From assembly GCA_024220505.1 (NCBI GenBank), contig JAKZZE010000003.1:2232001-2296000 (forward strand): a DNA stretch of 64,000 nucleotides, given 5' to 3'. Each line of letters starts with the position of its first letter. The first letter of the stretch is position 1. Shown here one piece after another: positions 5,192 through 30,595 of the stretch. Below the pieces are notes generated by a model, which did not search any database, was not told the DNA's origin, and was given only the letters and a program-made list of their open reading frames with translations. Both the position numbers and the translations under genes were made by a program. The DNA comes from Rhizopus arrhizus. Lineage: Eukaryota > Mucoromycota > Mucoromycetes > Mucorales > Rhizopodaceae.

Positions 5192-8100
5192 TAAGCCCAA
5201 AAAAAAAATACATAGTTTGGTTGATTTAGCAGGTAGTGAAAGAGCCAATAGTACAGGAGCCACCGGGGTTCGATTAAAAGAAGGTGCGAATATCAATAAA
5301 TCCCTTACTACGTTGGGTAAAGTCATTGCTGGTCTTGCTGAACAAGCCTCGGCTGAACCTAAAAAGGGATCCAAGAAAGCCAAAGATGCTTCCCATATCC
5401 CCTTTCGTGACTCTGTATGTATTCCGTTTTGAATCATCCAGCCACTCATGCCTTGTTTTCTATAGGTCTTGACTTGGTTACTCAAAGATTCCTTGGGGGG
5501 TAACTCAAAGACATGCATGATTGCCGCCATCTCACCAGCCGATTATGACGAAACGCTCAGTACGCTACGTTATGCCGATCAAGCCAAGAAGATCAAGACG
5601 AAGGCCGTGGTGAACGAAGACCCGAGTGCGAAGGCAATGCGTGAATTGAAGGACGAAGTGGAAGCGCTCCGTCAAGCCTTGATGGTCTACGCTCCTGCTG
5701 AAGTCGAAAAGATCACAGCCACAGCCAAGGGAAAGAAGGCACCAGCTGCCTCGACGACCGCACCCAGTGAAAATCATGCCAACCTGAAATCGCCTGTTGT
5801 TTTCACCGATGCCTCTGGAAAGACCACGCAGCTGACCAAGGAAGAAATGGTCGAACAGCTCCAGACGACCGAGAAGCTTTTGGGCGAATTGAATCAGACG
5901 TGGGAAGAAAAGCTGCAGAAGACGGAAGAGATTCATCAGGTGAGGGAAGACACGCTGAAGAACTTGGGCATCACGGTCGAAAAGAACCAGGTTGGACTGT
6001 ATACACCGAAAGAGATACCCTATTTGATCAATCTCAACGAAGATCCCTTGATGTCTGAATGTCTCATGTATAATCTCAAGCCAGGGACGACGTTTGTGGA
6101 TCGTTTCCATGAGAACCCAGAAGAGAACACGAGCACGCGACCGGACGGTGCTTATGTGATTCGACTGAGTGGCTCCAATATGGAAGAAGGTCACTGTTAC
6201 TTTGAGAATACCAATGACTCAGTCACGCTCTATCCTCGCGAGGGCTGTACGACGATGGTCAATGGCCTACGTGTCTCTGAACCCAAGAAACTCAAGAGTG
6301 GGTACCGTATCATCCTGGGCGACTACCATGTCTTTCGATTCAATAACCCAGGTGAAGCCAAGAAGGAGCGTGAGAGCATGATCATCACCGAAAGCATCAC
6401 TCGACCCGAAAGCAGAGGATCGCCTTCGCCTCTGCCTGAAGAAAGACCGATGTCTCCACCTTCGGAAGTCATGGATTGGAATTTTGCACGAAGAGAGGCG
6501 ATGCTGAATACGTACATCAATGACCCCAAATTCAATCAGTTCACAGACCAAGATCTGGACAAGTTGTTTGATGAAGTGGCCAAGGTGCGTGTGTTGCGCA
6601 AACGACAGTCGGCCGGATCGGACTCACTTTCCCGTCGAACCTCTTCTTCCTCTGTGCGTCGCAGTGTGTACTCAGCCACGGCCTCGTCTGTCTTTATGGA
6701 CGATGACGGATACTATACCACCGACACGAGCACCACGATTTCTTCACTGACCGAGGATGAATTGAACCAGATGGACAGCAAGCAGGTGCTCGAATACGAA
6801 CATCAGCGCAGAAAGTATGAGGCCAAGCTCCGTCGTCTCTCCCGTCGCATCTCCTCCGGTCCCACCCTGTCCCTTTCCCCACGCGAAGTGGCCCTTGGCA
6901 AAAAGGCCCTTGCTCACTGGAAACGCCAGAGGAAGGTCGCGATGGCCCAAGCGATCCTTCGGAATGACGCCTATGTCCAGCAAGCCAACCAACTCGCCAA
7001 GCAATCCCACAAGGACGTCTTTTATCAATTTGCCGTGGTCTATCAGGATGACATCATCTCTGCCTCGCACTGGGAAGCAGCCAATTCGCATCATCACCGA
7101 CACGGGATCGACACGGACCTGCTCAAGGAAAAGAAACCGTGTGTGGGGATCCAGGTGATTGACTACAAGCATCAATCGACCTACATCTGGTCCATCGACA
7201 AGTTCGTCACCCGTCTTCGACACCTTCAGGGTCTCAACTTTGTCACGGACGCCAAGAAGCATATCAAGGGGGACGATCTCTTTTATAACTCGGACGTGCC
7301 TTCCTATGTCTTGGTCGGTCTGGCCAAGATGCCCCTCCAGAACCTGGCGACCCAGGTCCCTGTCGAAAGTCAAATCTCGGTTCACTGCCGCAACTCGGGT
7401 CGTCTGATGGGTCAATTGAAGGTGGCGATCGCGCCCATCGCCCGATCGGTTCGAAACCCGGTGGACGAAGACGACGTGGTGTATGATGAAGAAAATCCTC
7501 GTGATTTGCTTCATATCGGACAGCAACTGGTGTTTGAAGTGTCGATGATCGAAATGACCGGGCTGGATTCGGATCTCTTCAGTCGTGTCCATGCTCAATT
7601 CCGTCTCTCCAACTTTGGCAGCAACCTCGAAGGCATCTTTGCTTCCGACTCTGTCGAGCACAGCAAGCAGCGTGCGCCGATCGTGTTTGATTATCATCAG
7701 ACGCTCTCCATGGCCGTCACGGAGGAGTTGTTGAACGTGATTCATCAAAAGGAAGTGGTCTTTGAAATCTATGGTAAACCAAAACAGGCCTATCTGGATT
7801 CACTCTTGATCGTCAAGGAAGTCACAGACCAGCCGCAGGAGGTCATCATTCCTCCCAAGCGATCTCAAGATGTCCTCGCACGTATCCAAGTCTGTGAAAT
7901 CACACCCGAAGGAGATTATAAGCCGGTGCCTGTCGAATCGGACGAAGGCATCTTTTCGCTTCAGCAAGGTCAGCAGCGACGTATCGTCTTGTCACTGGAA
8001 CACGCTACCACTCAGCCTGAACTGAATCTGGATAAAATTGTAGAGGTCAGGTTAGGACAAGTGCGTCTGGTGGATGCCAAGGGCAAGGTGATCGAAGCCC

Positions 8101-9194
8101 CACCCTCTGCCCAATCGGACATTCATCTCAAACTCATGGACTCCAAACGAAACTCAAGAGCAAGCCAAACAGACTATCAAACACTCAAGGCGGAATGCTC
8201 CTGGGACAGTTCGCTTCATGACACCTTACTCTTGAACGCTGTCACTCAAAACTCACACAAGGTCCTCTTGAACCTCAGCTGGGTGATTCGAAACGCGAGT
8301 CAGCGTGAAATCAAGTTTGAAAGAGAGATCGCGGTCCACATCAAGGATCAAACCAAGGCCGCGAGCATCAAGAAGAAGAAGGCGACGGGCAACAAACGAG
8401 CGTCGTCCCTCTTCAACATTTTCTCTAGCAAAGCAGGTCACATCAAGAACCACATTGCGTGCATCTATGTTGTTGAACATCATGCAGAGTTGTTTGGCAT
8501 TCAAGACATCTGCAAACAAGATTTGCCTTCTCGCATCCTCCGTGTCTATGATGAACATCGTGAGAGGATGCTGCATAGAGAACAAGTCGAAAAGATGGCC
8601 TACAGGCTCTATCTCGATGAGCAACTGGATCGTCTGTGTGATGAGCCGCCGACACGACTCGGAGTGAAACCAAACTTGGAGCACATTCTCAAGCTTTGGT
8701 CCAGTCCGACCAAAAAGGACGTCTTGCCGACCCCGGCCAATCCTACCCTTCGTCGATGGTCCCCGCATGTTCATCAGGTCCTGATCGATGATCATACGAT
8801 AGCCAAGAAGGGGTATTTACAACGCAAGAATGATTCAGAAGGCAAAGAGTGGGAAAAGTTTTGGTGTGTGCTTGTAGGGTAAAGTACTGGGAGATGGAAC
8901 GTGAACAGAGACTGACATTGCTATAGAAATTATATGTTTATGTATGAAGATCAATCGGAAACAAATGAAGTGGATGTGATTCATATAAGAAATGTACATA
9001 AGGAAGATGGCACGACAATGGTAAATGAATACATTCCTTTTTTTTTTAAAAATACTCACTGTAAACGATAGAAGTCAAAAACATTTTTTACAATTGATAC
9101 CCTCTATACTTCACATAAATTACAAGCACAAGATCATGCTAGTATGTTGAATTGGGTAGATATGATCGATAAGATATCAAGCTTTTATGGTTAA
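4258..9194 (+). CDS. Kinesin-3 motor (Unc104/KIF1A type)
   Basis: Eight exons: 4258-4312, 4361-4603, 4658-4692, 4740-5146, 5216-5414, 5466-8878, 8927-9020 and 9072-9194; 1,522 aa. The motor domain is N-terminal ([15 protein letters not shown]-loop [11 protein letters not shown] split by introns; switch [12 protein letters not shown]; switch [12 protein letters not shown]). An FHA domain follows at about residues 515-610 ([10 protein letters not shown], then NGLRV, then [17 protein letters not shown]). A kinesin-associated region comes next, and a C-terminal PH domain begins [20 protein letters not shown] and is completed only by the last two small exons. Unc104-type motors carry early endosomes and vesicles towards microtubule plus ends in hyphae; the PH domain binds phosphoinositides on cargo. 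The intron at 5147-5215 holds a long A-run. The big exon is much more GC-rich than its surroundings, which suggests codon selection. The donor at 4604 is GTCAGT. Confidence 0.93.
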
Positions 9195-24237: not shown

Positions 24238-25821
24238 ATGATGCCAACAATAAACATTACTAAAGACACACTTCGTGTACCTTCTGGACCCCCTTCACCT
24301 ACACTTTCAACAACATCCTTCATGTCTTCCGTTTCTTGGATGGCAGAGAAAACATCTACAGAATTAATTCCAATGTTAAAGAATGCGTATACTGCTCTCA
24401 AAGACAAAGAAAAAGGTAAGAACAAGGGGTGTGCGAAAAATTGAGCCCTTGCTTACATGTGATTATCAACTCTGTATATAGATCTAGTGCTTGCAGCCGA
24501 AATAGGAAAGTCATTATTGGAACACAATTTACGCTTAAAGTCAAATTATGATTCGCTCTTACAGTCGACAACACCTCCTATCACGCCTTCATCATCCACT
24601 TCGAACAAATACATTCAAGAGCAGCCGATCATTGATATAAGTGAGGAGGAGCATACGATGCATTTTATACCTTCTCGCATTACGCGTGAAGCAATGATTG
24701 AAGTGCTCGAAAGAAAAAATGCAGATCTGACAAAGAAGCTGGAGCTGGCCATGGCAGAGCAAGATAAGCTTATGAAAAGCAATTCAAAAAATACCCGAAA
24801 ATTAGAGAATGAAATATCCCTTTTGAAAAGTAATCTAGATATTGCATCAACAAAGATGCAAGAGCTTGAAGAAATGAATGAAAGACAACGAAAGCAGGAA
24901 GAACTGATGGCCTCAAAGCAAACACAAAACAAAATGGATGAAGAGCTGGTGGAGGAACTCTATAATGAAATTGATAAAATGGAACAAGAAAAACAAAATA
25001 TGATCCAATCGAAATTGGAATTAGAAACAAAGTTGGCTGCAACTTTGAAGGATCTGGGTGAGTTAAAGGTACAATTTGAGAAGTTTGAATTCACCCAAAG
25101 TGACTTTGAGGAGCTCAAAGAAGCCTATGAGCGACAGTTTGCTCATATTGAAGAATTGAAAATCAGTCTAGAGGAACATAGAATCATCATTCAACGATTA
25201 AAGGAGCGTGGTATTAATGTGAGCACGGCCTATTCAACATCAGCATCAAGTGAACATGAAGGCACATCGAAAAAGCATACACTCCTGGGCGAACTAGAAT
25301 CTGAATGGTTAAAAACAAACAATAAATCTCCTGCTACTGCTCCTTCTCCTCCGCAAACATTTATGGAATTTACTGAAAAGTCCTTGTCTGCGATTTATAA
25401 TGCACCTTCTTTAATTGGGCTAGAAAGTGTACTATCAAAAGCAACTGGTATGGACCCTCAGTTAATAGATGACGCTATCAATCTTATTAATCAAATCGAG
25501 GCTGAGCATTTTCAAGAAAAAACCTTGGCACTTTATGAAAAGCATGGAAATTATGATGAGATAAGTGATGATGAGGGTGATTTTGGTATCTTTCAAGATC
25601 GCTACCCAGAGTCAGGTCTTTATCCTTCTTTGTCAAGGCCAGAGCAAATGCAGGTTCAGCGATTTGTTGACGAGCCAAAGACTTTTGTGGGAAAACTTCA
25701 AAATCACGTTCGAAAATTATTTACCTTGGTTTGGAAATGGTGCAGATTCTCAGTGATCCTTGCTACTGCTCTTATGATAAATGCGTATCAAGGCCCTGAT
25801 TCTTTATTAATAGCCTACTAA
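24238..25821 (+). CDS. Coiled-coil protein with CC1-box motif and hydrophobic C-terminus, candidate dynein cargo adaptor
   Basis: Two exons (24238-24415, 24482-25821) encode 505 aa; an alternative start lies one codon later. Right after the intron the protein reads DLVLAAEIGKSLLEHN (AA-x2-G-x2-LL at 24493-24519). This is the CC1-box consensus used by BICD, BICD-related, Spindly and TRAK/HAP1 adaptors to bind the dynein light intermediate chain. A long coiled coil follows (about residues 120-320, for example ERKNADLTKKLELAMAEQDK). After a Ser/Pro-rich linker there is an amphipathic/acidic segment. The end is LFTLVWKWCRFSVILATALM plus about 15 residues, a hydrophobic stretch that could be a tail anchor. 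The family is not recognised beyond this. Role as an activating adaptor for dynein on a membrane is inferred. Confidence 0.8.
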
Positions 25822-26282: not shown

Positions 26283-29200
26283 CTAAATATTGATCACTTC
26301 ACTTGAGCATCCACTGCACCTTGGCACTTCCATGAATGCGTTGAAAGATGGTTTTTCTAGAGGAGGTAATTTGCCAACTGCTGGTATAAATTCACCTACA
26401 GGTTCTTCTGTTTCTTCCTCTTCATGCTCAAAAACCTTCCAATCAAATCCGCTTTCGCTCACAGGGCTGTACCCATTCGCCATTAGTTTCATCTGTGCTG
26501 TATCTAACGCCACTCGTCCGGATAAAAGGTTATCTTCATGGTATTCTTTCTGGCGCCACATTCTTTCCAATTCTTCTTCATATTCACTTTTCAATCTTTC
26601 CATAGCTACTTTTAATTCCTGTCTTTCTCTATCAATTTGAGCCTTTTCTCTTTGCAACTTGGCTTCAGAATCAAATTGACGTTCACGTTGAGCAGTAAGT
26701 TCATTTCGAATGGTCGTAAAGGCTTCATATTGTCTTTGCAACTTGTGCTCAAGTTCTTCCTTTTCTGGAGTACTTGCACATTTGGCCTCCAATGCACGCA
26801 CCTTTTCTCTCAATTCCTTCATTCTTTGCTCAGTTTCTGTTGGATTTAATATCCTGTCGGATGCCTCTTCGACTGCTTCTTCCTTTGCTTTTGTTAACTC
26901 TTCTAATTTTTCTTCCTTTTGCTTCAAGTTCTCCTTCATCTGATCGTATTCATTCTCTATTTCTGAAAGCCTGACAATTTGCTGCTGCAGTTCTTCTATT
27001 TTTTTATCGCGTGTTTGGAGCTGTCTTTTGATATCTGCCTGCTGAATATCGGCCATTTTTCTTTCGGCATTACGGCCCTCTTTGCTCTCAAGCGAACGGA
27101 TTTTTTGTTTCAATTCTTCTACTTCTTTTGCCGATGCATTTTGTTTTGATTGGCGACTGTTTTGATCCTTGGCTAAGGCTAATTGACCTCGAAGCTTTTT
27201 AATTTCTTTTTTGCTATTTTTCAACTCTTCACTCAACTGCTCAGACTGTTCTGTCGTCTGACTGTTTGTTTTTGTCTTTAGAGCCTCAATCTCCGAACTC
27301 AGCTCCTTTGATCTGGCTTGTTCATCGGATATTTTCTCTTCATATTCGCGTTTCAATCGATCGATTTCTTCTCGATAGCATCTTTCTTTCTCTTCAAGTT
27401 CTTCTGTGGCAGCCTTATTGTTTGCTGATTGCTCTATTTTTTGGTTTTGCTCCAATTTGGCTGCATCTAATTCGTGATTAATAAGCTGAAGCCTTGACTC
27501 AAGATCCCTATTGGCTTGCTCGGCTTTTGTCAGTTTTTCTATTATCTCTTTCATGTGTGTCTGCTCTTCAGATAACTTGGTCTGCCATTCTTCTTTTTCC
27601 TTTTCTAATATGGATAGCTTTGACTCTTGCGTAGCAGATCGATCTTTGACTGTAGCCAATTCTTGATCTTTCATTTGTATATGGCCCTGGAATGCTTCAT
27701 CTTGCTGCTTCACTGTTTCCTCAAGTTTGGCAATCTTGCTTTCAAATGAGGTATTGGAAGTAGACAAAAGTTTTTCTTTTTCTTCAAGCTCAGTACGAAG
27801 ACGATGGATATCTATCTCGAGTGAAGAGGCGTTAGATTGATGCTGATCCTCTAATTCCTTAAGTTTTGACTGTAATTGTTTGGCATTTTCACGTTCAGAC
27901 TGAAGTGAATCCTGAAGCTCTTGAATCAATCTTTTATGATCACTCTCTTGTTCCTTCCATGCATCTACATTCTCCTGTTGCTGTTTGGCCCTTGTTCGCT
28001 CACCATCAAGCTCTGTCTGTAGAGCAGACAAGGTATCCTGGTGTTCCTTCTTTAATTTCTCAATGGCATCTTGCAATTCTGTCGATTTGGCACGTTCTAC
28101 CTCGACTTCAGCTTGCAAACTGTTTGTTGAGTTGTGGAGCTTCAACTTAATCTTACCTAAGGCTGAACTCTTTTGTTGTACTTTTTCACGTTCCACGTCC
28201 AGTTCATTTTGTAAGGCGGTGAGTGCTTGAGTATGCTCAGATTTTAGATTTTCAAAGTGTTCGATTTGTTGGTGCAGCTCGGATATTTTGGTGCGTTCAG
28301 CATCAAGTTCGCGCTGAGTGATGGATAAGGTGACATCATGCTCTTTCTTGAGTTTTTCAAGTGTGTTGATCATGTCTTGCAATCCTGCTGATTTTGCTCT
28401 TTCCGCGTCCAGTTCAGCTTTTAACCCACTCGATGTTGTATCGTGTTTTTCCTTCAATTGGTCGAGAGCATCCGTCTTCTCTTGCAGTTTCACCCGCTCT
28501 GCGTCAAGCTCCACTTGAAGGTTTTTTACAGAGGCTGTATGTTCTTCTTTAGACTGCTGGAGATGATCGATTGTTGCTTGCATTTCTGTTGATTTGTTGC
28601 GTTCTGACTCTATCTCTTTTTCAAGACGTTTGGCATTCTCAACATGTTCCTCTTTCATGTTTGTTATTTGGGATTCTAAATCAGTACATTTATCTTGTTT
28701 CTCTTTGAGCTCATTTTTGAGTGCGGCCATTTCATTTCTGAGCTGTGATTTACTATCATTAGATTCCTGCAGGACCTTTTGGTTTTCTTGCTTAAGCATA
28801 TTATTCTGCTTTTCAAGTTCTTTGATTTTGTTTTCTTCCATTTCAAGACGGTCTTTAATTGATTTCAATTCATTTCTGGCTTCATCAAGAGAGGTTTGCA
28901 TACCGTCTGAGCTCTTTTCTTTGTCTGATAGCTTTTCCTTTAATTCATTGATTTCTTTCTCAAATTCTTTTAATTTAACTTGATGCAATTCGGTTTCTTT
29001 TTCATTTGCGGACTGTAGTTCCTTTAGCTTCTTTTCCAACTCAATTGATTTAGTATGCTCATCATTTAACTCTTTCTTGGTGACTGTCACTTGATCTTCG
29101 AGTGTCTTTACTTTTTTCTCTGCCTTCTTTTTCAATTTCTCTTGTTCGTTCAGCGCTGTCTTTACTTCATCCACCTTGGTACGTTCACTAGTAACAAGAC

Positions 29201-30595
29201 CCTGTACAGAAGCCAGCTCTTGTTCAAGATCAGCAATCTTCGTAAAATGGCTTTCCTTCTCCTCTACATGAACTTTATGTTGCTCATGTATTTTCGCTTC
29301 CATATCATCCAGCTGTTTTGTGAAATCTTGTTCCACAGCTTTCAATTTGTCTTTAAATTCACTTGCCTTTTTTATTTCTAATTCAAGTTGACTTTTAGTC
29401 GCTGCAAACTCCTCCTCGAGCTCCTTTCTGCTAGATTCTATAGTTTGCTTTGCTTTCTCCGACTCTTCAAGTTTTGATTGAAGCTTTTTGGATACGTTAT
29501 GTTGCTCATTGAGTTGCTTTTTAATGGACGACAACTCCTGCGCAACATCCAAAGCTGATTTTTGATGTCCATTTAGCTCCTTTTTTAAAGCATCCAGTTC
29601 ATTCACTTGAGTCTCTAGGGATATCGATTTTTCCTTTTCAGTATCCAATTGATTTTTTATACTTTCTAATTCTTGCTGAAGATTTGCAACAGATGCTTCA
29701 CCTTTTTGCCTTTGATCTTCCAAATTATTTTGTAACTTGTTTGTCTTGGTACGTTCAGAATCCAGCTGCTTCTCAGCAATGGATAGATTCTCTTGCAGAC
29801 TAGCCGCTCTTGATTCATGATGAGCAAGATCCTTTCTCAGTTGCTCAAGTTCATCTATTTTGGCTTGAAGCCCCGAGGATTGTTTACGTTCTCGATCGAG
29901 TTCGTTCTTGATGGACTCCAGTGTTTCTCGAGCCTTGGCTGCCTCTGATTCGAGCTCCTGTTTCTCTTTTTCATAAAGCGCACGCAAATCGTTTGCTTTG
30001 GCCTCGAGTTCCTTAGCATGTGATTGCTCCTTTTGAAGTCTGTCTTTCACCAACGATAATTCCTCTCCGTTTTTCCGTTTTCTTTCCTCTTCTTTTTTTA
30101 ACTGGACCTCTAGTTCATTCTTTGCCTCACTGAGTCTCTTTTCTGTCTCGTCCTTTTGTTTTTGTAGTTCACTGCTGAACTGGTCAGAAAGTTGTTTGAT
30201 TTTGTTTTCGTGTGTTGCACGTGCGGACTCTGCCTCTGCCTGCAGTTGCTGAATCGTTTCTTTTGATTGCCTTAATTGTTCTTCAAACAACAAAGTCTAA
30301 TTCATGTTAGTGTCTCCTTTTTTTCTATTAATTTATCATTACCGTAGGCTTGGTTGATTCGGGTTCTTCTTCTTTTAGAGAGCTTATTTCTTCAGTTGTG
30401 GATTGACTGGTTTCCGTCAAATGACTTGTTGGTGGGCTTGATGGTTCAGCCACATTAGCATGGTCAGCCTTACTCTGAAACTTTTTTAACTGCCAAAAGA
30501 GTTTAGTATTCCTTTCTATTTCGTCAGATCTTCTTTACTTTTTTACGTGCAGCAAGGAGCTTTGCCTTTCTTTCTTGATCCTCAGGTGTAGACAT
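26283..30595 (-). CDS. Large golgin-like coiled-coil protein (GM130-type N-terminus)
   Basis: Three exons on the minus strand: the start exon at 30595 (MSTPEDQERKAKLLAARKK), a middle exon beginning LKKFQSKAD, and one giant exon ending at TAG 26283; about 1,400 aa in total. The N-terminus (basic, then AKLLAARKKLKKFQ) resembles GM130/GOLGA2, whose first residues bind the tether p115/Uso1. Nearly all the rest is coiled coil with repeated blocks of the type SELQDxIEKLKKEH and LQxELDxERxK, suggesting internal duplication of a roughly 40-50 residue unit. The C-terminus leaves the coiled coil at about the last 70 residues and ends PRCSGCSSEVINI: a CxxC followed by a hydrophobic tail, which recalls the GRASP-binding ends of golgin-45 and GM130. 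Expected at the cis-Golgi as a vesicle tether. A myosin- or Uso1-like protein is a less likely alternative. Confidence 0.8.

What the first reader, a model, noticed from the sequence alone, without database searches (positions are those of the whole stretch)
24238..25821. Candidate membrane-anchored dynein adaptor with a CC1 box
LAAEIGKSLL matches AA-x2-G-x2-LL exactly, is followed directly by a long coiled coil, and the protein ends in a hydrophobic segment. CC1-box adaptors (BICD, Spindly, TRAK, CDR2) are known mostly from animals; filamentous fungi are mainly known to use Hook. A tail-anchored version would be a new kind of cargo link.
Basis: partly seen in the sequence, partly recalled or inferred. 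Interest (0 to 1): 0.75.

Follow-up and report, generated by a model that had tools for sequence, protein, structure and literature searches.

The report
Fungal membrane-anchored candidate dynein adaptor
A mould gene encodes a conserved protein that looks like an animal-type dynein adaptor joined to its own membrane anchor, a combination I did not find described for fungi; that it really binds the motor has not been shown.

Summary
The gene (24238-25821, +) has one 66-base intron and encodes 505 aa in a Rhizopus delemar-like genome. A family profile against PDB sequences ranks two dynein adaptors first, BICDR1 (3.9e-9) and TRAK2 (1.2e-5). The three dynein light intermediate chain (LIC) loci found here carry ANFFQSLLSKK, matching the LIC1 peptide that CC1 boxes bind. 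The C-terminal WxWCRF...GP stretch has the highest information content, but its membrane prediction is marginal in Rhizopus and strong only in Glomeromycotina- and Agaricomycete-type rows. Best reading: a CC1-box adaptor with its own membrane anchor that hands an endomembrane (ER or nuclear envelope is a guess) to dynein-dynactin. Transmembrane adaptors are known (KASH5, ZYG-12), but in the EF-hand and Hook classes. Listed Agaricomycete-type relatives lack the canonical box; two of four Rhizopus copies have an A-to-V change. No binding, motility or localisation was shown.

The parts
24238..24415 (+). exon 1 (aa 1-59 and the first base of codon 60; start ATG at 24238 or 24241)
   Evidence: frame and GT donor read from the sequence; matches annotated 505-aa protein P0001
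24416..24481 (+). phase-1 intron, 66 bases, GT...AG, two in-frame stops; sits directly before the CC1 box
   Evidence: in all four copies of this genome the frame upstream of the box loses likeness at the same place, which suggests a shared intron site (inference)
24482..25821 (+). exon 2 (rest of codon 60 to aa 505 and stop)
24482..24528 (+). CC1 box block DLVLAAEIGKSLLEHN (aa 60-75; AAEIGKSLL = 24493-24519); the first base of D60 is 24415
   Evidence: AAxxGxxLL in 121 of 126 rows covering the region; aligns to BICDR1 and TRAK2
24676..25206 (+). main predicted coil helices (aa 125-260 and 265-301, with a break at 261-264)
   Evidence: AlphaFold2 model m096e030ce7e8
25279..25308 (+). Spindly-type motif TLLGELESEW (aa 326-335); a modelled helix of low confidence starts at it (aa 327-339)
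   Evidence: model (block pLDDT 49 and 67); consensus from PMC9481740 (passages)
25684..25788 (+). C-terminal helix aa 461-495, hydrophobic in its second half: proposed membrane anchor
   Evidence: block pLDDT 93-94 in its middle; hydropathy
25732..25797 (+). WKWCRFSVILATALMINAYQGP, the stretch with the highest information content in the family
   Evidence: GP kept in 126 of 133 rows

Best explanation
The gene encodes a dynein-dynactin adaptor of the CC1-box class that carries its own membrane anchor. Proposed working: the C-terminal helix inserts into an organelle membrane with the rest of the protein in the cytosol; [quoted passage not shown] the coil lies along dynactin; the LLxELE motif docks on dynactin's pointed end; the membrane is thereby pulled towards microtubule minus ends without a Rab, Miro or FTS-FHIP receptor. 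Shown here by computation: conservation, order and spacing of the motifs, presence of the LIC helix and of p62, and a conserved C-terminal hydrophobic helix. Inferred: dimerisation, LIC and dynactin binding, motor activation, membrane insertion, orientation and cargo. My guess for cargo is ER or nuclear envelope (about 0.45), because the short tail after the anchor is neutral to acidic in Mucoromycota-type rows (sorting rule recalled).
For: CC1 box exact in 121 of 126 covered rows, with a Spindly-type motif too in 114 of these. Mean share of the commonest residue in 33 aligned members: CC1 box 0.91, Spindly block 0.79, membrane stretch 0.72, helix before the box 0.73, all other segments 0.36-0.58 (segment limits are mine). 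Spacing from CC1 box to Spindly motif 263 residues here, median 276 (234-398) in 119 rows. A profile of 34 members against all PDB sequences: BICDR1 3.9e-9 and TRAK2 1.2e-5 come first; the first non-adaptor is crescentin at 0.0092. The TRAK2 alignment lays SLAAEIEG on the Spindly block. The three LIC loci found each carry ANFFQSLLSKK; best PDB match is the LIC1 peptide of 6b9h/6pse (E 0.021). Dynactin p62 is present (0 of 14 controls) and probably p25.
Against: No binding or motility data. The window protein is below Pfam HAP1_N's cut-off (20.4 against 33.9 bits), and 0 of 9 members rescanned reached it. The coil is broken by a disordered 90-121 stretch, so the HBS1 site that follows the box in animal adaptors is not evident. 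The minimal Spindly pattern is cheap: 47% of shuffles hold it, and its modelled helix has low confidence. TRAK2's stretch with the Spindly motif scores only i-E 0.24 by itself. Two of four Rhizopus copies have VAEIG, 0 of 120 Agaricomycete-type rows keep AAxxGxxLL, and only 2 of 120 match the strict Spindly pattern, so the family survives without them. The p25 search also rang in 4 of 14 prokaryote controls. The membrane segment is marginal in Rhizopus (recalled scale).
Confidence: 0.75

Rival explanations
1. A KASH-like outer nuclear membrane protein: the same CC1-box adaptor, but held at the nucleus through a SUN protein and moving nuclei in coenocytic hyphae (a fungal counterpart of KASH5 or ZYG-12). 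This is a special case of the main reading, so the two odds overlap.
For: One hydrophobic helix near the C-terminus with a conserved GP after it; two SUN-domain places in the genome. Plant KASH domains are shorter and end differently from animal ones (PMC13200780, start of abstract in the listing), so a short odd tail is not fatal.
Against: Only about 10-13 residues follow the helix in Mucoromycota-type rows and their ends vary; rust and Agaricomycete-type tails are longer (medians 97 in 4 rows and 22 in 120 rows). The strongest conservation is in the helix, not at the C-terminus (C-tail share 0.36).
Confidence: 0.2
2. A membrane-anchored coiled-coil tether (golgin-like or contact-site protein) whose N-terminal helix resembles a CC1 box but binds a kinesin or another partner rather than dynein.
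For: Long coil plus C-terminal anchor is a golgin-like layout (recalled); Agaricomycete-type homologues keep the anchor while the box reads for example TTAVCKSLY.
Against: Exact conservation of AAxxG and of the Spindly block over the Mucoromycota-type rows; the profile's best PDB matches are dynein adaptors.
Confidence: 0.15
3. The C-terminal helix is an amphipathic, peripheral membrane or protein-binding helix, so the protein is a soluble CC1-box adaptor.
For: Rhizopus and rust segments score as marginal: recalled Hessa sum +3.1 for the window, below 0 in 1 of 97 non-Glomeromycotina Mucoromycota-type rows and 0 of 4 rust rows; W, K/R and C lie in its first turns.
Against: The best C-terminal segment is below 0 (strongly hydrophobic) in 21 of 25 Glomeromycotina-type and 119 of 120 Agaricomycete-type rows.
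Confidence: 0.15

Closest known systems
BICDR1 (BICD family-like cargo adaptor 1)
   Same: CC1-box segment aligns as KEKDLVLAA.GK.LLE.N; best PDB match of the family profile (3.9e-9); its printed sequence shows SLLSEIE after the coil, although the profile alignment does not lay that on the Spindly block.
   Different: No membrane anchor (recalled); in the profile alignment the linker after the box is much shorter than here.
TRAK1/2 and HAP1 (Pfam HAP1_N)
   Same: TRAK has a CC1 box and a Spindly motif, both needed for activation (PMC10011603, passages); TRAK2 is the second PDB match (1.2e-5); some fungal members carry a precomputed PF04849 label.
   Different: TRAK reaches mitochondria through Miro, a separate membrane protein; the window protein has its own C-terminal hydrophobic helix and misses the Pfam cut-off.
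KASH5 and C. elegans ZYG-12
   Same: Transmembrane dynein-binding proteins with long coils; KASH5 is a proven activating adaptor (PMC10071310, passages).
   Different: They carry EF-hands or a Hook domain; the window protein matches neither in Pfam and has a CC1 box.
Nesprin-2
   Different: There the motifs are atypical, in reversed order, and need BicD2; here the order is canonical.
HookA and the FTS-Hook-FHIP complex of filamentous fungi
   Same: Fungal dynein-to-membrane linkers; four HOOK_N places exist in this genome.
   Different: Hook protein rather than CC1 box, with cargo recognition by FHIP on Rab5 endosomes (PMC8730729, passages).

Membership tests
CC1-box dynein activating adaptors | AAXXG CC1 box in an N-terminal helix | tested here: met
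   Exact in the window; 121 of 126 covered rows; inside modelled helix 40-89, pLDDT about 93
CC1-box dynein activating adaptors | LIC C-terminal helix partner present in the same organism | tested here: met
   ANFFQSLLSKK at each of the 3 LIC places found; matches the LIC1 peptide of 6b9h/6pse, E 0.021
CC1-box dynein activating adaptors | Spindly motif after the coil | tested here: met
   Present in the window; 114 of 126 covered rows keep both motifs; 0 of 6 rust-type rows and 2 of 120 Agaricomycete-type rows met the strict pattern
CC1-box dynein activating adaptors | Dynactin pointed end present to receive the motif | tested here: met
   p62 found, 0 of 14 controls ring; p25 likely from four collinear pieces, but 4 of 14 prokaryote controls also ring; p27 and Arp11 not searched
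CC1-box dynein activating adaptors | Uninterrupted coil of about 35-39 nm between the motifs | tested here: inconclusive
   263 residues separate them, but 90-121 is modelled disordered and 261-264 is a break
CC1-box dynein activating adaptors | HBS1 (CC2 box) adjacent to the CC1 box | tested here: inconclusive
   No motif search was made; the modelled helix ends 17 residues after AAEIGKSLL
CC1-box dynein activating adaptors | Binds LIC and activates dynein-dynactin motility | not testable with these tools
   Needs protein biochemistry
HAP1_N (PF04849: HAP1, TRAK) | Score above the family's curated cut-off | tested here: not met
   20.4 against 33.9 bits for the window; highest of 9 members rescanned 31.6
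KASH / LINC proteins | C-terminal membrane helix | tested here: inconclusive
   Helix 461-495, 10 residues from the end; hydrophobicity marginal in Rhizopus, strong in Glomeromycotina-type rows
KASH / LINC proteins | C-terminal SUN-binding peptide | tested here: inconclusive
   C-tail is weakly conserved (0.36) and of varied length; SUN binding itself was not tested
Hook or EF-hand dynein adaptors | Hook domain or EF-hands at the N-terminus | tested here: not met
   No such Pfam match at E up to 1

The most novel reading that the evidence does not exclude
CC1-box adaptors predate the split of animals and fungi, and Mucoromycota still use one that is itself a membrane protein: a one-piece organelle-to-dynein link for ER or nuclei in coenocytic hyphae, duplicated and perhaps tuned down (A-to-V box) in Rhizopus, and replaced by a non-canonical box in mushrooms while the anchor was kept.
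Probability: 0.35. Interest if true: 0.85.

Novelty: new variant of a known kind. Interest (0 to 1): 0.68.

Why it matters
In the papers I saw, fungal dynein-to-cargo adaptors are of the Hook type. A conserved CC1-box adaptor in Mucoromycota, with relatives in rusts and mushrooms, would argue that this adaptor class is older than animals and show that the motor link and the membrane anchor can be one polypeptide. It gives a ready test: natural paralogues with and without an intact box in one genome.

Tried and rejected
Considered and rejected: (1) Chance motif: rejected by conservation and profile hits. (2) A co-loss argument (paralogues that lose the CC1 box also lose the Spindly motif): dropped, because P0084 and P0085 still fit the minimal Spindly pattern (NLMHEL) while their box reads VAEIG; the tree of 69 chosen rows puts P0084, P0085 and P0090 in one clade, 100/100. 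(3) Rust Spindly motif: P0135 and P0136 hold RTLLSEM and RTLLSEI and P0138 RTLHSEI, while P0134, P0137 and P0139 gave none; only P0134, P0135 and P0138 were aligned. (4) A six-frame search of the own genome with PF04849 found 0 matches, not even the window gene, so it says nothing. (5) Of the five places found with P0001 in the own genome I count four as copies; C25:415465-415980 (22% identity, E 8.6e-5, coil only) was dropped. (6) Hits P0140-P0203 (64 rows, coiled coils of 558-562 aa, E 8.8e-7 to 1.9e-4) were dropped as coiled-coil look-alikes. 20 further hits and 126 of 246 were not listed, and each search scored only the candidates sharing most words, so absence from Ascomycota, chytrids or Mortierella was not tested. 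(7) Many rows come from unnamed metagenomes; '-type' groupings rest on similarity and on recalled taxonomy of the named hits. (8) Foldseek was not run because the model is a single chain of helices with pTM 0.23. (9) My notebook says 91 of 97; the correct count is 91 of 98 rows including the window protein. (10) The Hessa and Kyte-Doolittle values and the tail-charge rule are recalled.

Literature: ten searches. In their listings (titles, starts of abstracts) and in the passages I opened of nine papers, I saw none that describes a CC1-box adaptor in fungi or this family. The library lacks most subscription papers, and I read only section 13 of PMC8047447 as a whole. PMC10886578 and PMC10897228 (passages) gave nothing used. 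The UniRef name of one Puccinia sorghi member (P0138, cut short) already begins 'HAP1 N-terminal domain-containing'.

Full report
What is there. The window belongs to a 50.3 Mb genome of 41 contigs whose protein here is 98% identical to R. delemar P0001. The finding's frame holds two stops that vanish when a 66-base GT...AG intron (24416-24481) is removed, giving 505 aa. The CC1 box starts at the second exon. Four family copies were found in the genome (C23 twice, C40, C41); in all four the likeness breaks just before the box, consistent with a shared intron site.

Is the motif more than chance. AAxxGxxLL turned up in 111 of 200,000 shuffles of the protein. In the first homologue search 91 of 98 rows (window included) carry it exactly. 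After a second search, an alignment of 133 Mucoromycota-type rows (the window protein and 132 homologues) gave: 7 rows lacking the region; of the other 126, 114 with the exact box and a Spindly-type pattern, 7 with the box only, 3 with the Spindly pattern only, 2 with neither. Some misses are small changes (LLGDLE in P0062 and P0069); others are gaps or truncated rows (P0043, P0133).

The block [ST]LL[GS]ELExEW lies 263 residues after the box in the window and a median of 276 after it in 119 rows. It fits the published pattern: L, aliphatic or aromatic, any, E, aliphatic or aromatic (PMC9481740, passages). Alone this pattern is cheap (47% of shuffles). Its weight comes from conservation (mean top-residue share 0.79, against 0.47 and 0.37 in the linkers on either side, in 33 members chosen from 97) and from its place after a coil break, where that paper puts it in animal adaptors. 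In the model a short helix starts at it, with low confidence (block pLDDT 49 and 67).

Relation to known adaptors. With the single sequence, Pfam HAP1_N is below cut-off (20.4 of 33.9 bits) and BICDR1 is the best PDB sequence, at 0.016. With a profile of 34 of the 97 homologues, PDB sequences rank BICDR1 (3.9e-9) and TRAK2 (1.2e-5) first, then another BICDR1 construct (0.00099) and, as the first non-adaptor, crescentin at 0.0092. The match is carried mainly by about 36 residues round the box (domain i-E 3.5e-7); TRAK2's first stretch scores 0.0052 and its second, which lays SLAAEIEG on the Spindly block, only 0.24.

Machinery in the same genome. Three LIC places, each with ANFFQSLLSKK, matching the LIC1 peptide of 6b9h and 6pse (E 0.021 for a short peptide); 6PSE is a LIC peptide on a CC1 box (PMC9481740, passages). 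Dynactin p62 (0 of 14 controls). Probable p25 in four collinear pieces on C21, one over the cut-off, in a search that also rang in 4 of 14 prokaryote controls. Four HOOK_N places and two SUN-domain places. A published survey already noted dynactin1 duplications in Rhizopus and Mucor (PMC3583065, passages).

The anchor. The ten-residue window with the highest information content in the protein is WKWCRFSVIL, and GP is kept in 126 of 133 rows. Hydrophobicity is uneven: recalled Hessa sums are below 0 in 21 of 25 Glomeromycotina-type and 119 of 120 Agaricomycete-type rows, but in only 1 of 97 other Mucoromycota-type rows (43 of 97 are below 2) and 0 of 4 rust rows. I take it as a membrane helix because the segment is plainly one in relatives; the Rhizopus copy is marginal alone. 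The 12 residues after it have median net charge -1 (other Mucoromycota-type), -2 (Glomeromycotina-type), -2 (rust) and +2 (Agaricomycete-type). By a recalled rule this mildly favours ER or nuclear envelope over mitochondria in Mucoromycota and leaves the cargo open.

Evolution. Named hits span Mucorales, Umbelopsis, Jimgerdemannia and Glomeromycotina, rusts and Agaricomycetes (higher taxa recalled). Rust-type rows keep the box (6 of 6) in proteins of 933-1112 aa. Agaricomycete-type rows keep a hydrophobic segment in their last third (best mean over 1.6 in 120 of 120; WLWLQF in 18 of the 21 printed), but 0 of 120 keep AAxxGxxLL. The 120 are those listed of 246. In the genome of the window two copies have AAEIG or AAELG and two have VAEIG. 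A double AA-to-VV change in Spindly inhibits LIC binding (PMC9481740, passage), so the VAEIG copies may bind LIC less well; that is inference.

Mechanism, with status. (1) Membrane insertion by the C-terminal helix: inferred from hydropathy and model. (2) LIC binding by the CC1 box: inferred from motif, profile and partner. (3) Dynactin docking by coil and Spindly motif: inferred. (4) Minus-end pulling of the membrane: inferred. TRAK needs both motifs for activation (PMC10011603, passages).

Known or new. Transmembrane adaptors are known: the KASH5 paper says that KASH5 and ZYG-12, unlike other adaptors identified so far, are transmembrane (PMC10071310, passages). Nesprin-2 has atypical, reversed motifs that need BicD2 (PMC11310688, passages). 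Fungal adaptors in the papers seen are Hook-type (PMC8730729, passages; PMC8047447, section 13). A CC1-box adaptor with its own anchor, in fungi, was not found in ten searches (named under Tried and rejected). I file it as a new variant of the CC1-box adaptor kind: well supported by sequence, unproven by biochemistry.

Noticed in passing
G000 C40:1190283-1191626, C23:1762634-1764026, C41:144308-145312 (L010-L015): Three paralogues of the gene. The C40 copy keeps AAELG and stops right after the GP; the other two have VAEIG in place of AAEIG, close to the AA-to-VV change that inhibits LIC binding in Spindly.
   Followed up: partly
window 26283-29303 and upstream, minus strand: The neighbouring gene encodes a very long coiled-coil protein; its frame stays open from the listed ATG back to at least 30200. 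The listed part has no Pfam match at E 0.001.
   Followed up: no
window 5517-8882, plus strand: Kinesin gene part with Kinesin_assoc and DUF3694 domains (kinesin-3 type by recall), about 15 kb from the adaptor gene; probably coincidence.
   Followed up: no
P0097 and P0204-P0322 (Agaricomycete-type): Homologues keep the anchor helix but have another sequence at the CC1 box (for example TTAVCKSLY); 91 of 119 hold a [KR]xS[VL][VIL]xL[FL] pattern, typically SVVGLFD, which in P0097 aligns with the Spindly block. The motor link may have been changed or lost.
   Followed up: partly
window aa 385-414 (about 25456-25545): A modelled helix (block pLDDT about 77-88 over aa 381-410) between the Spindly motif and the anchor, of unknown role; possibly a regulatory or cargo site.
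   Followed up: no
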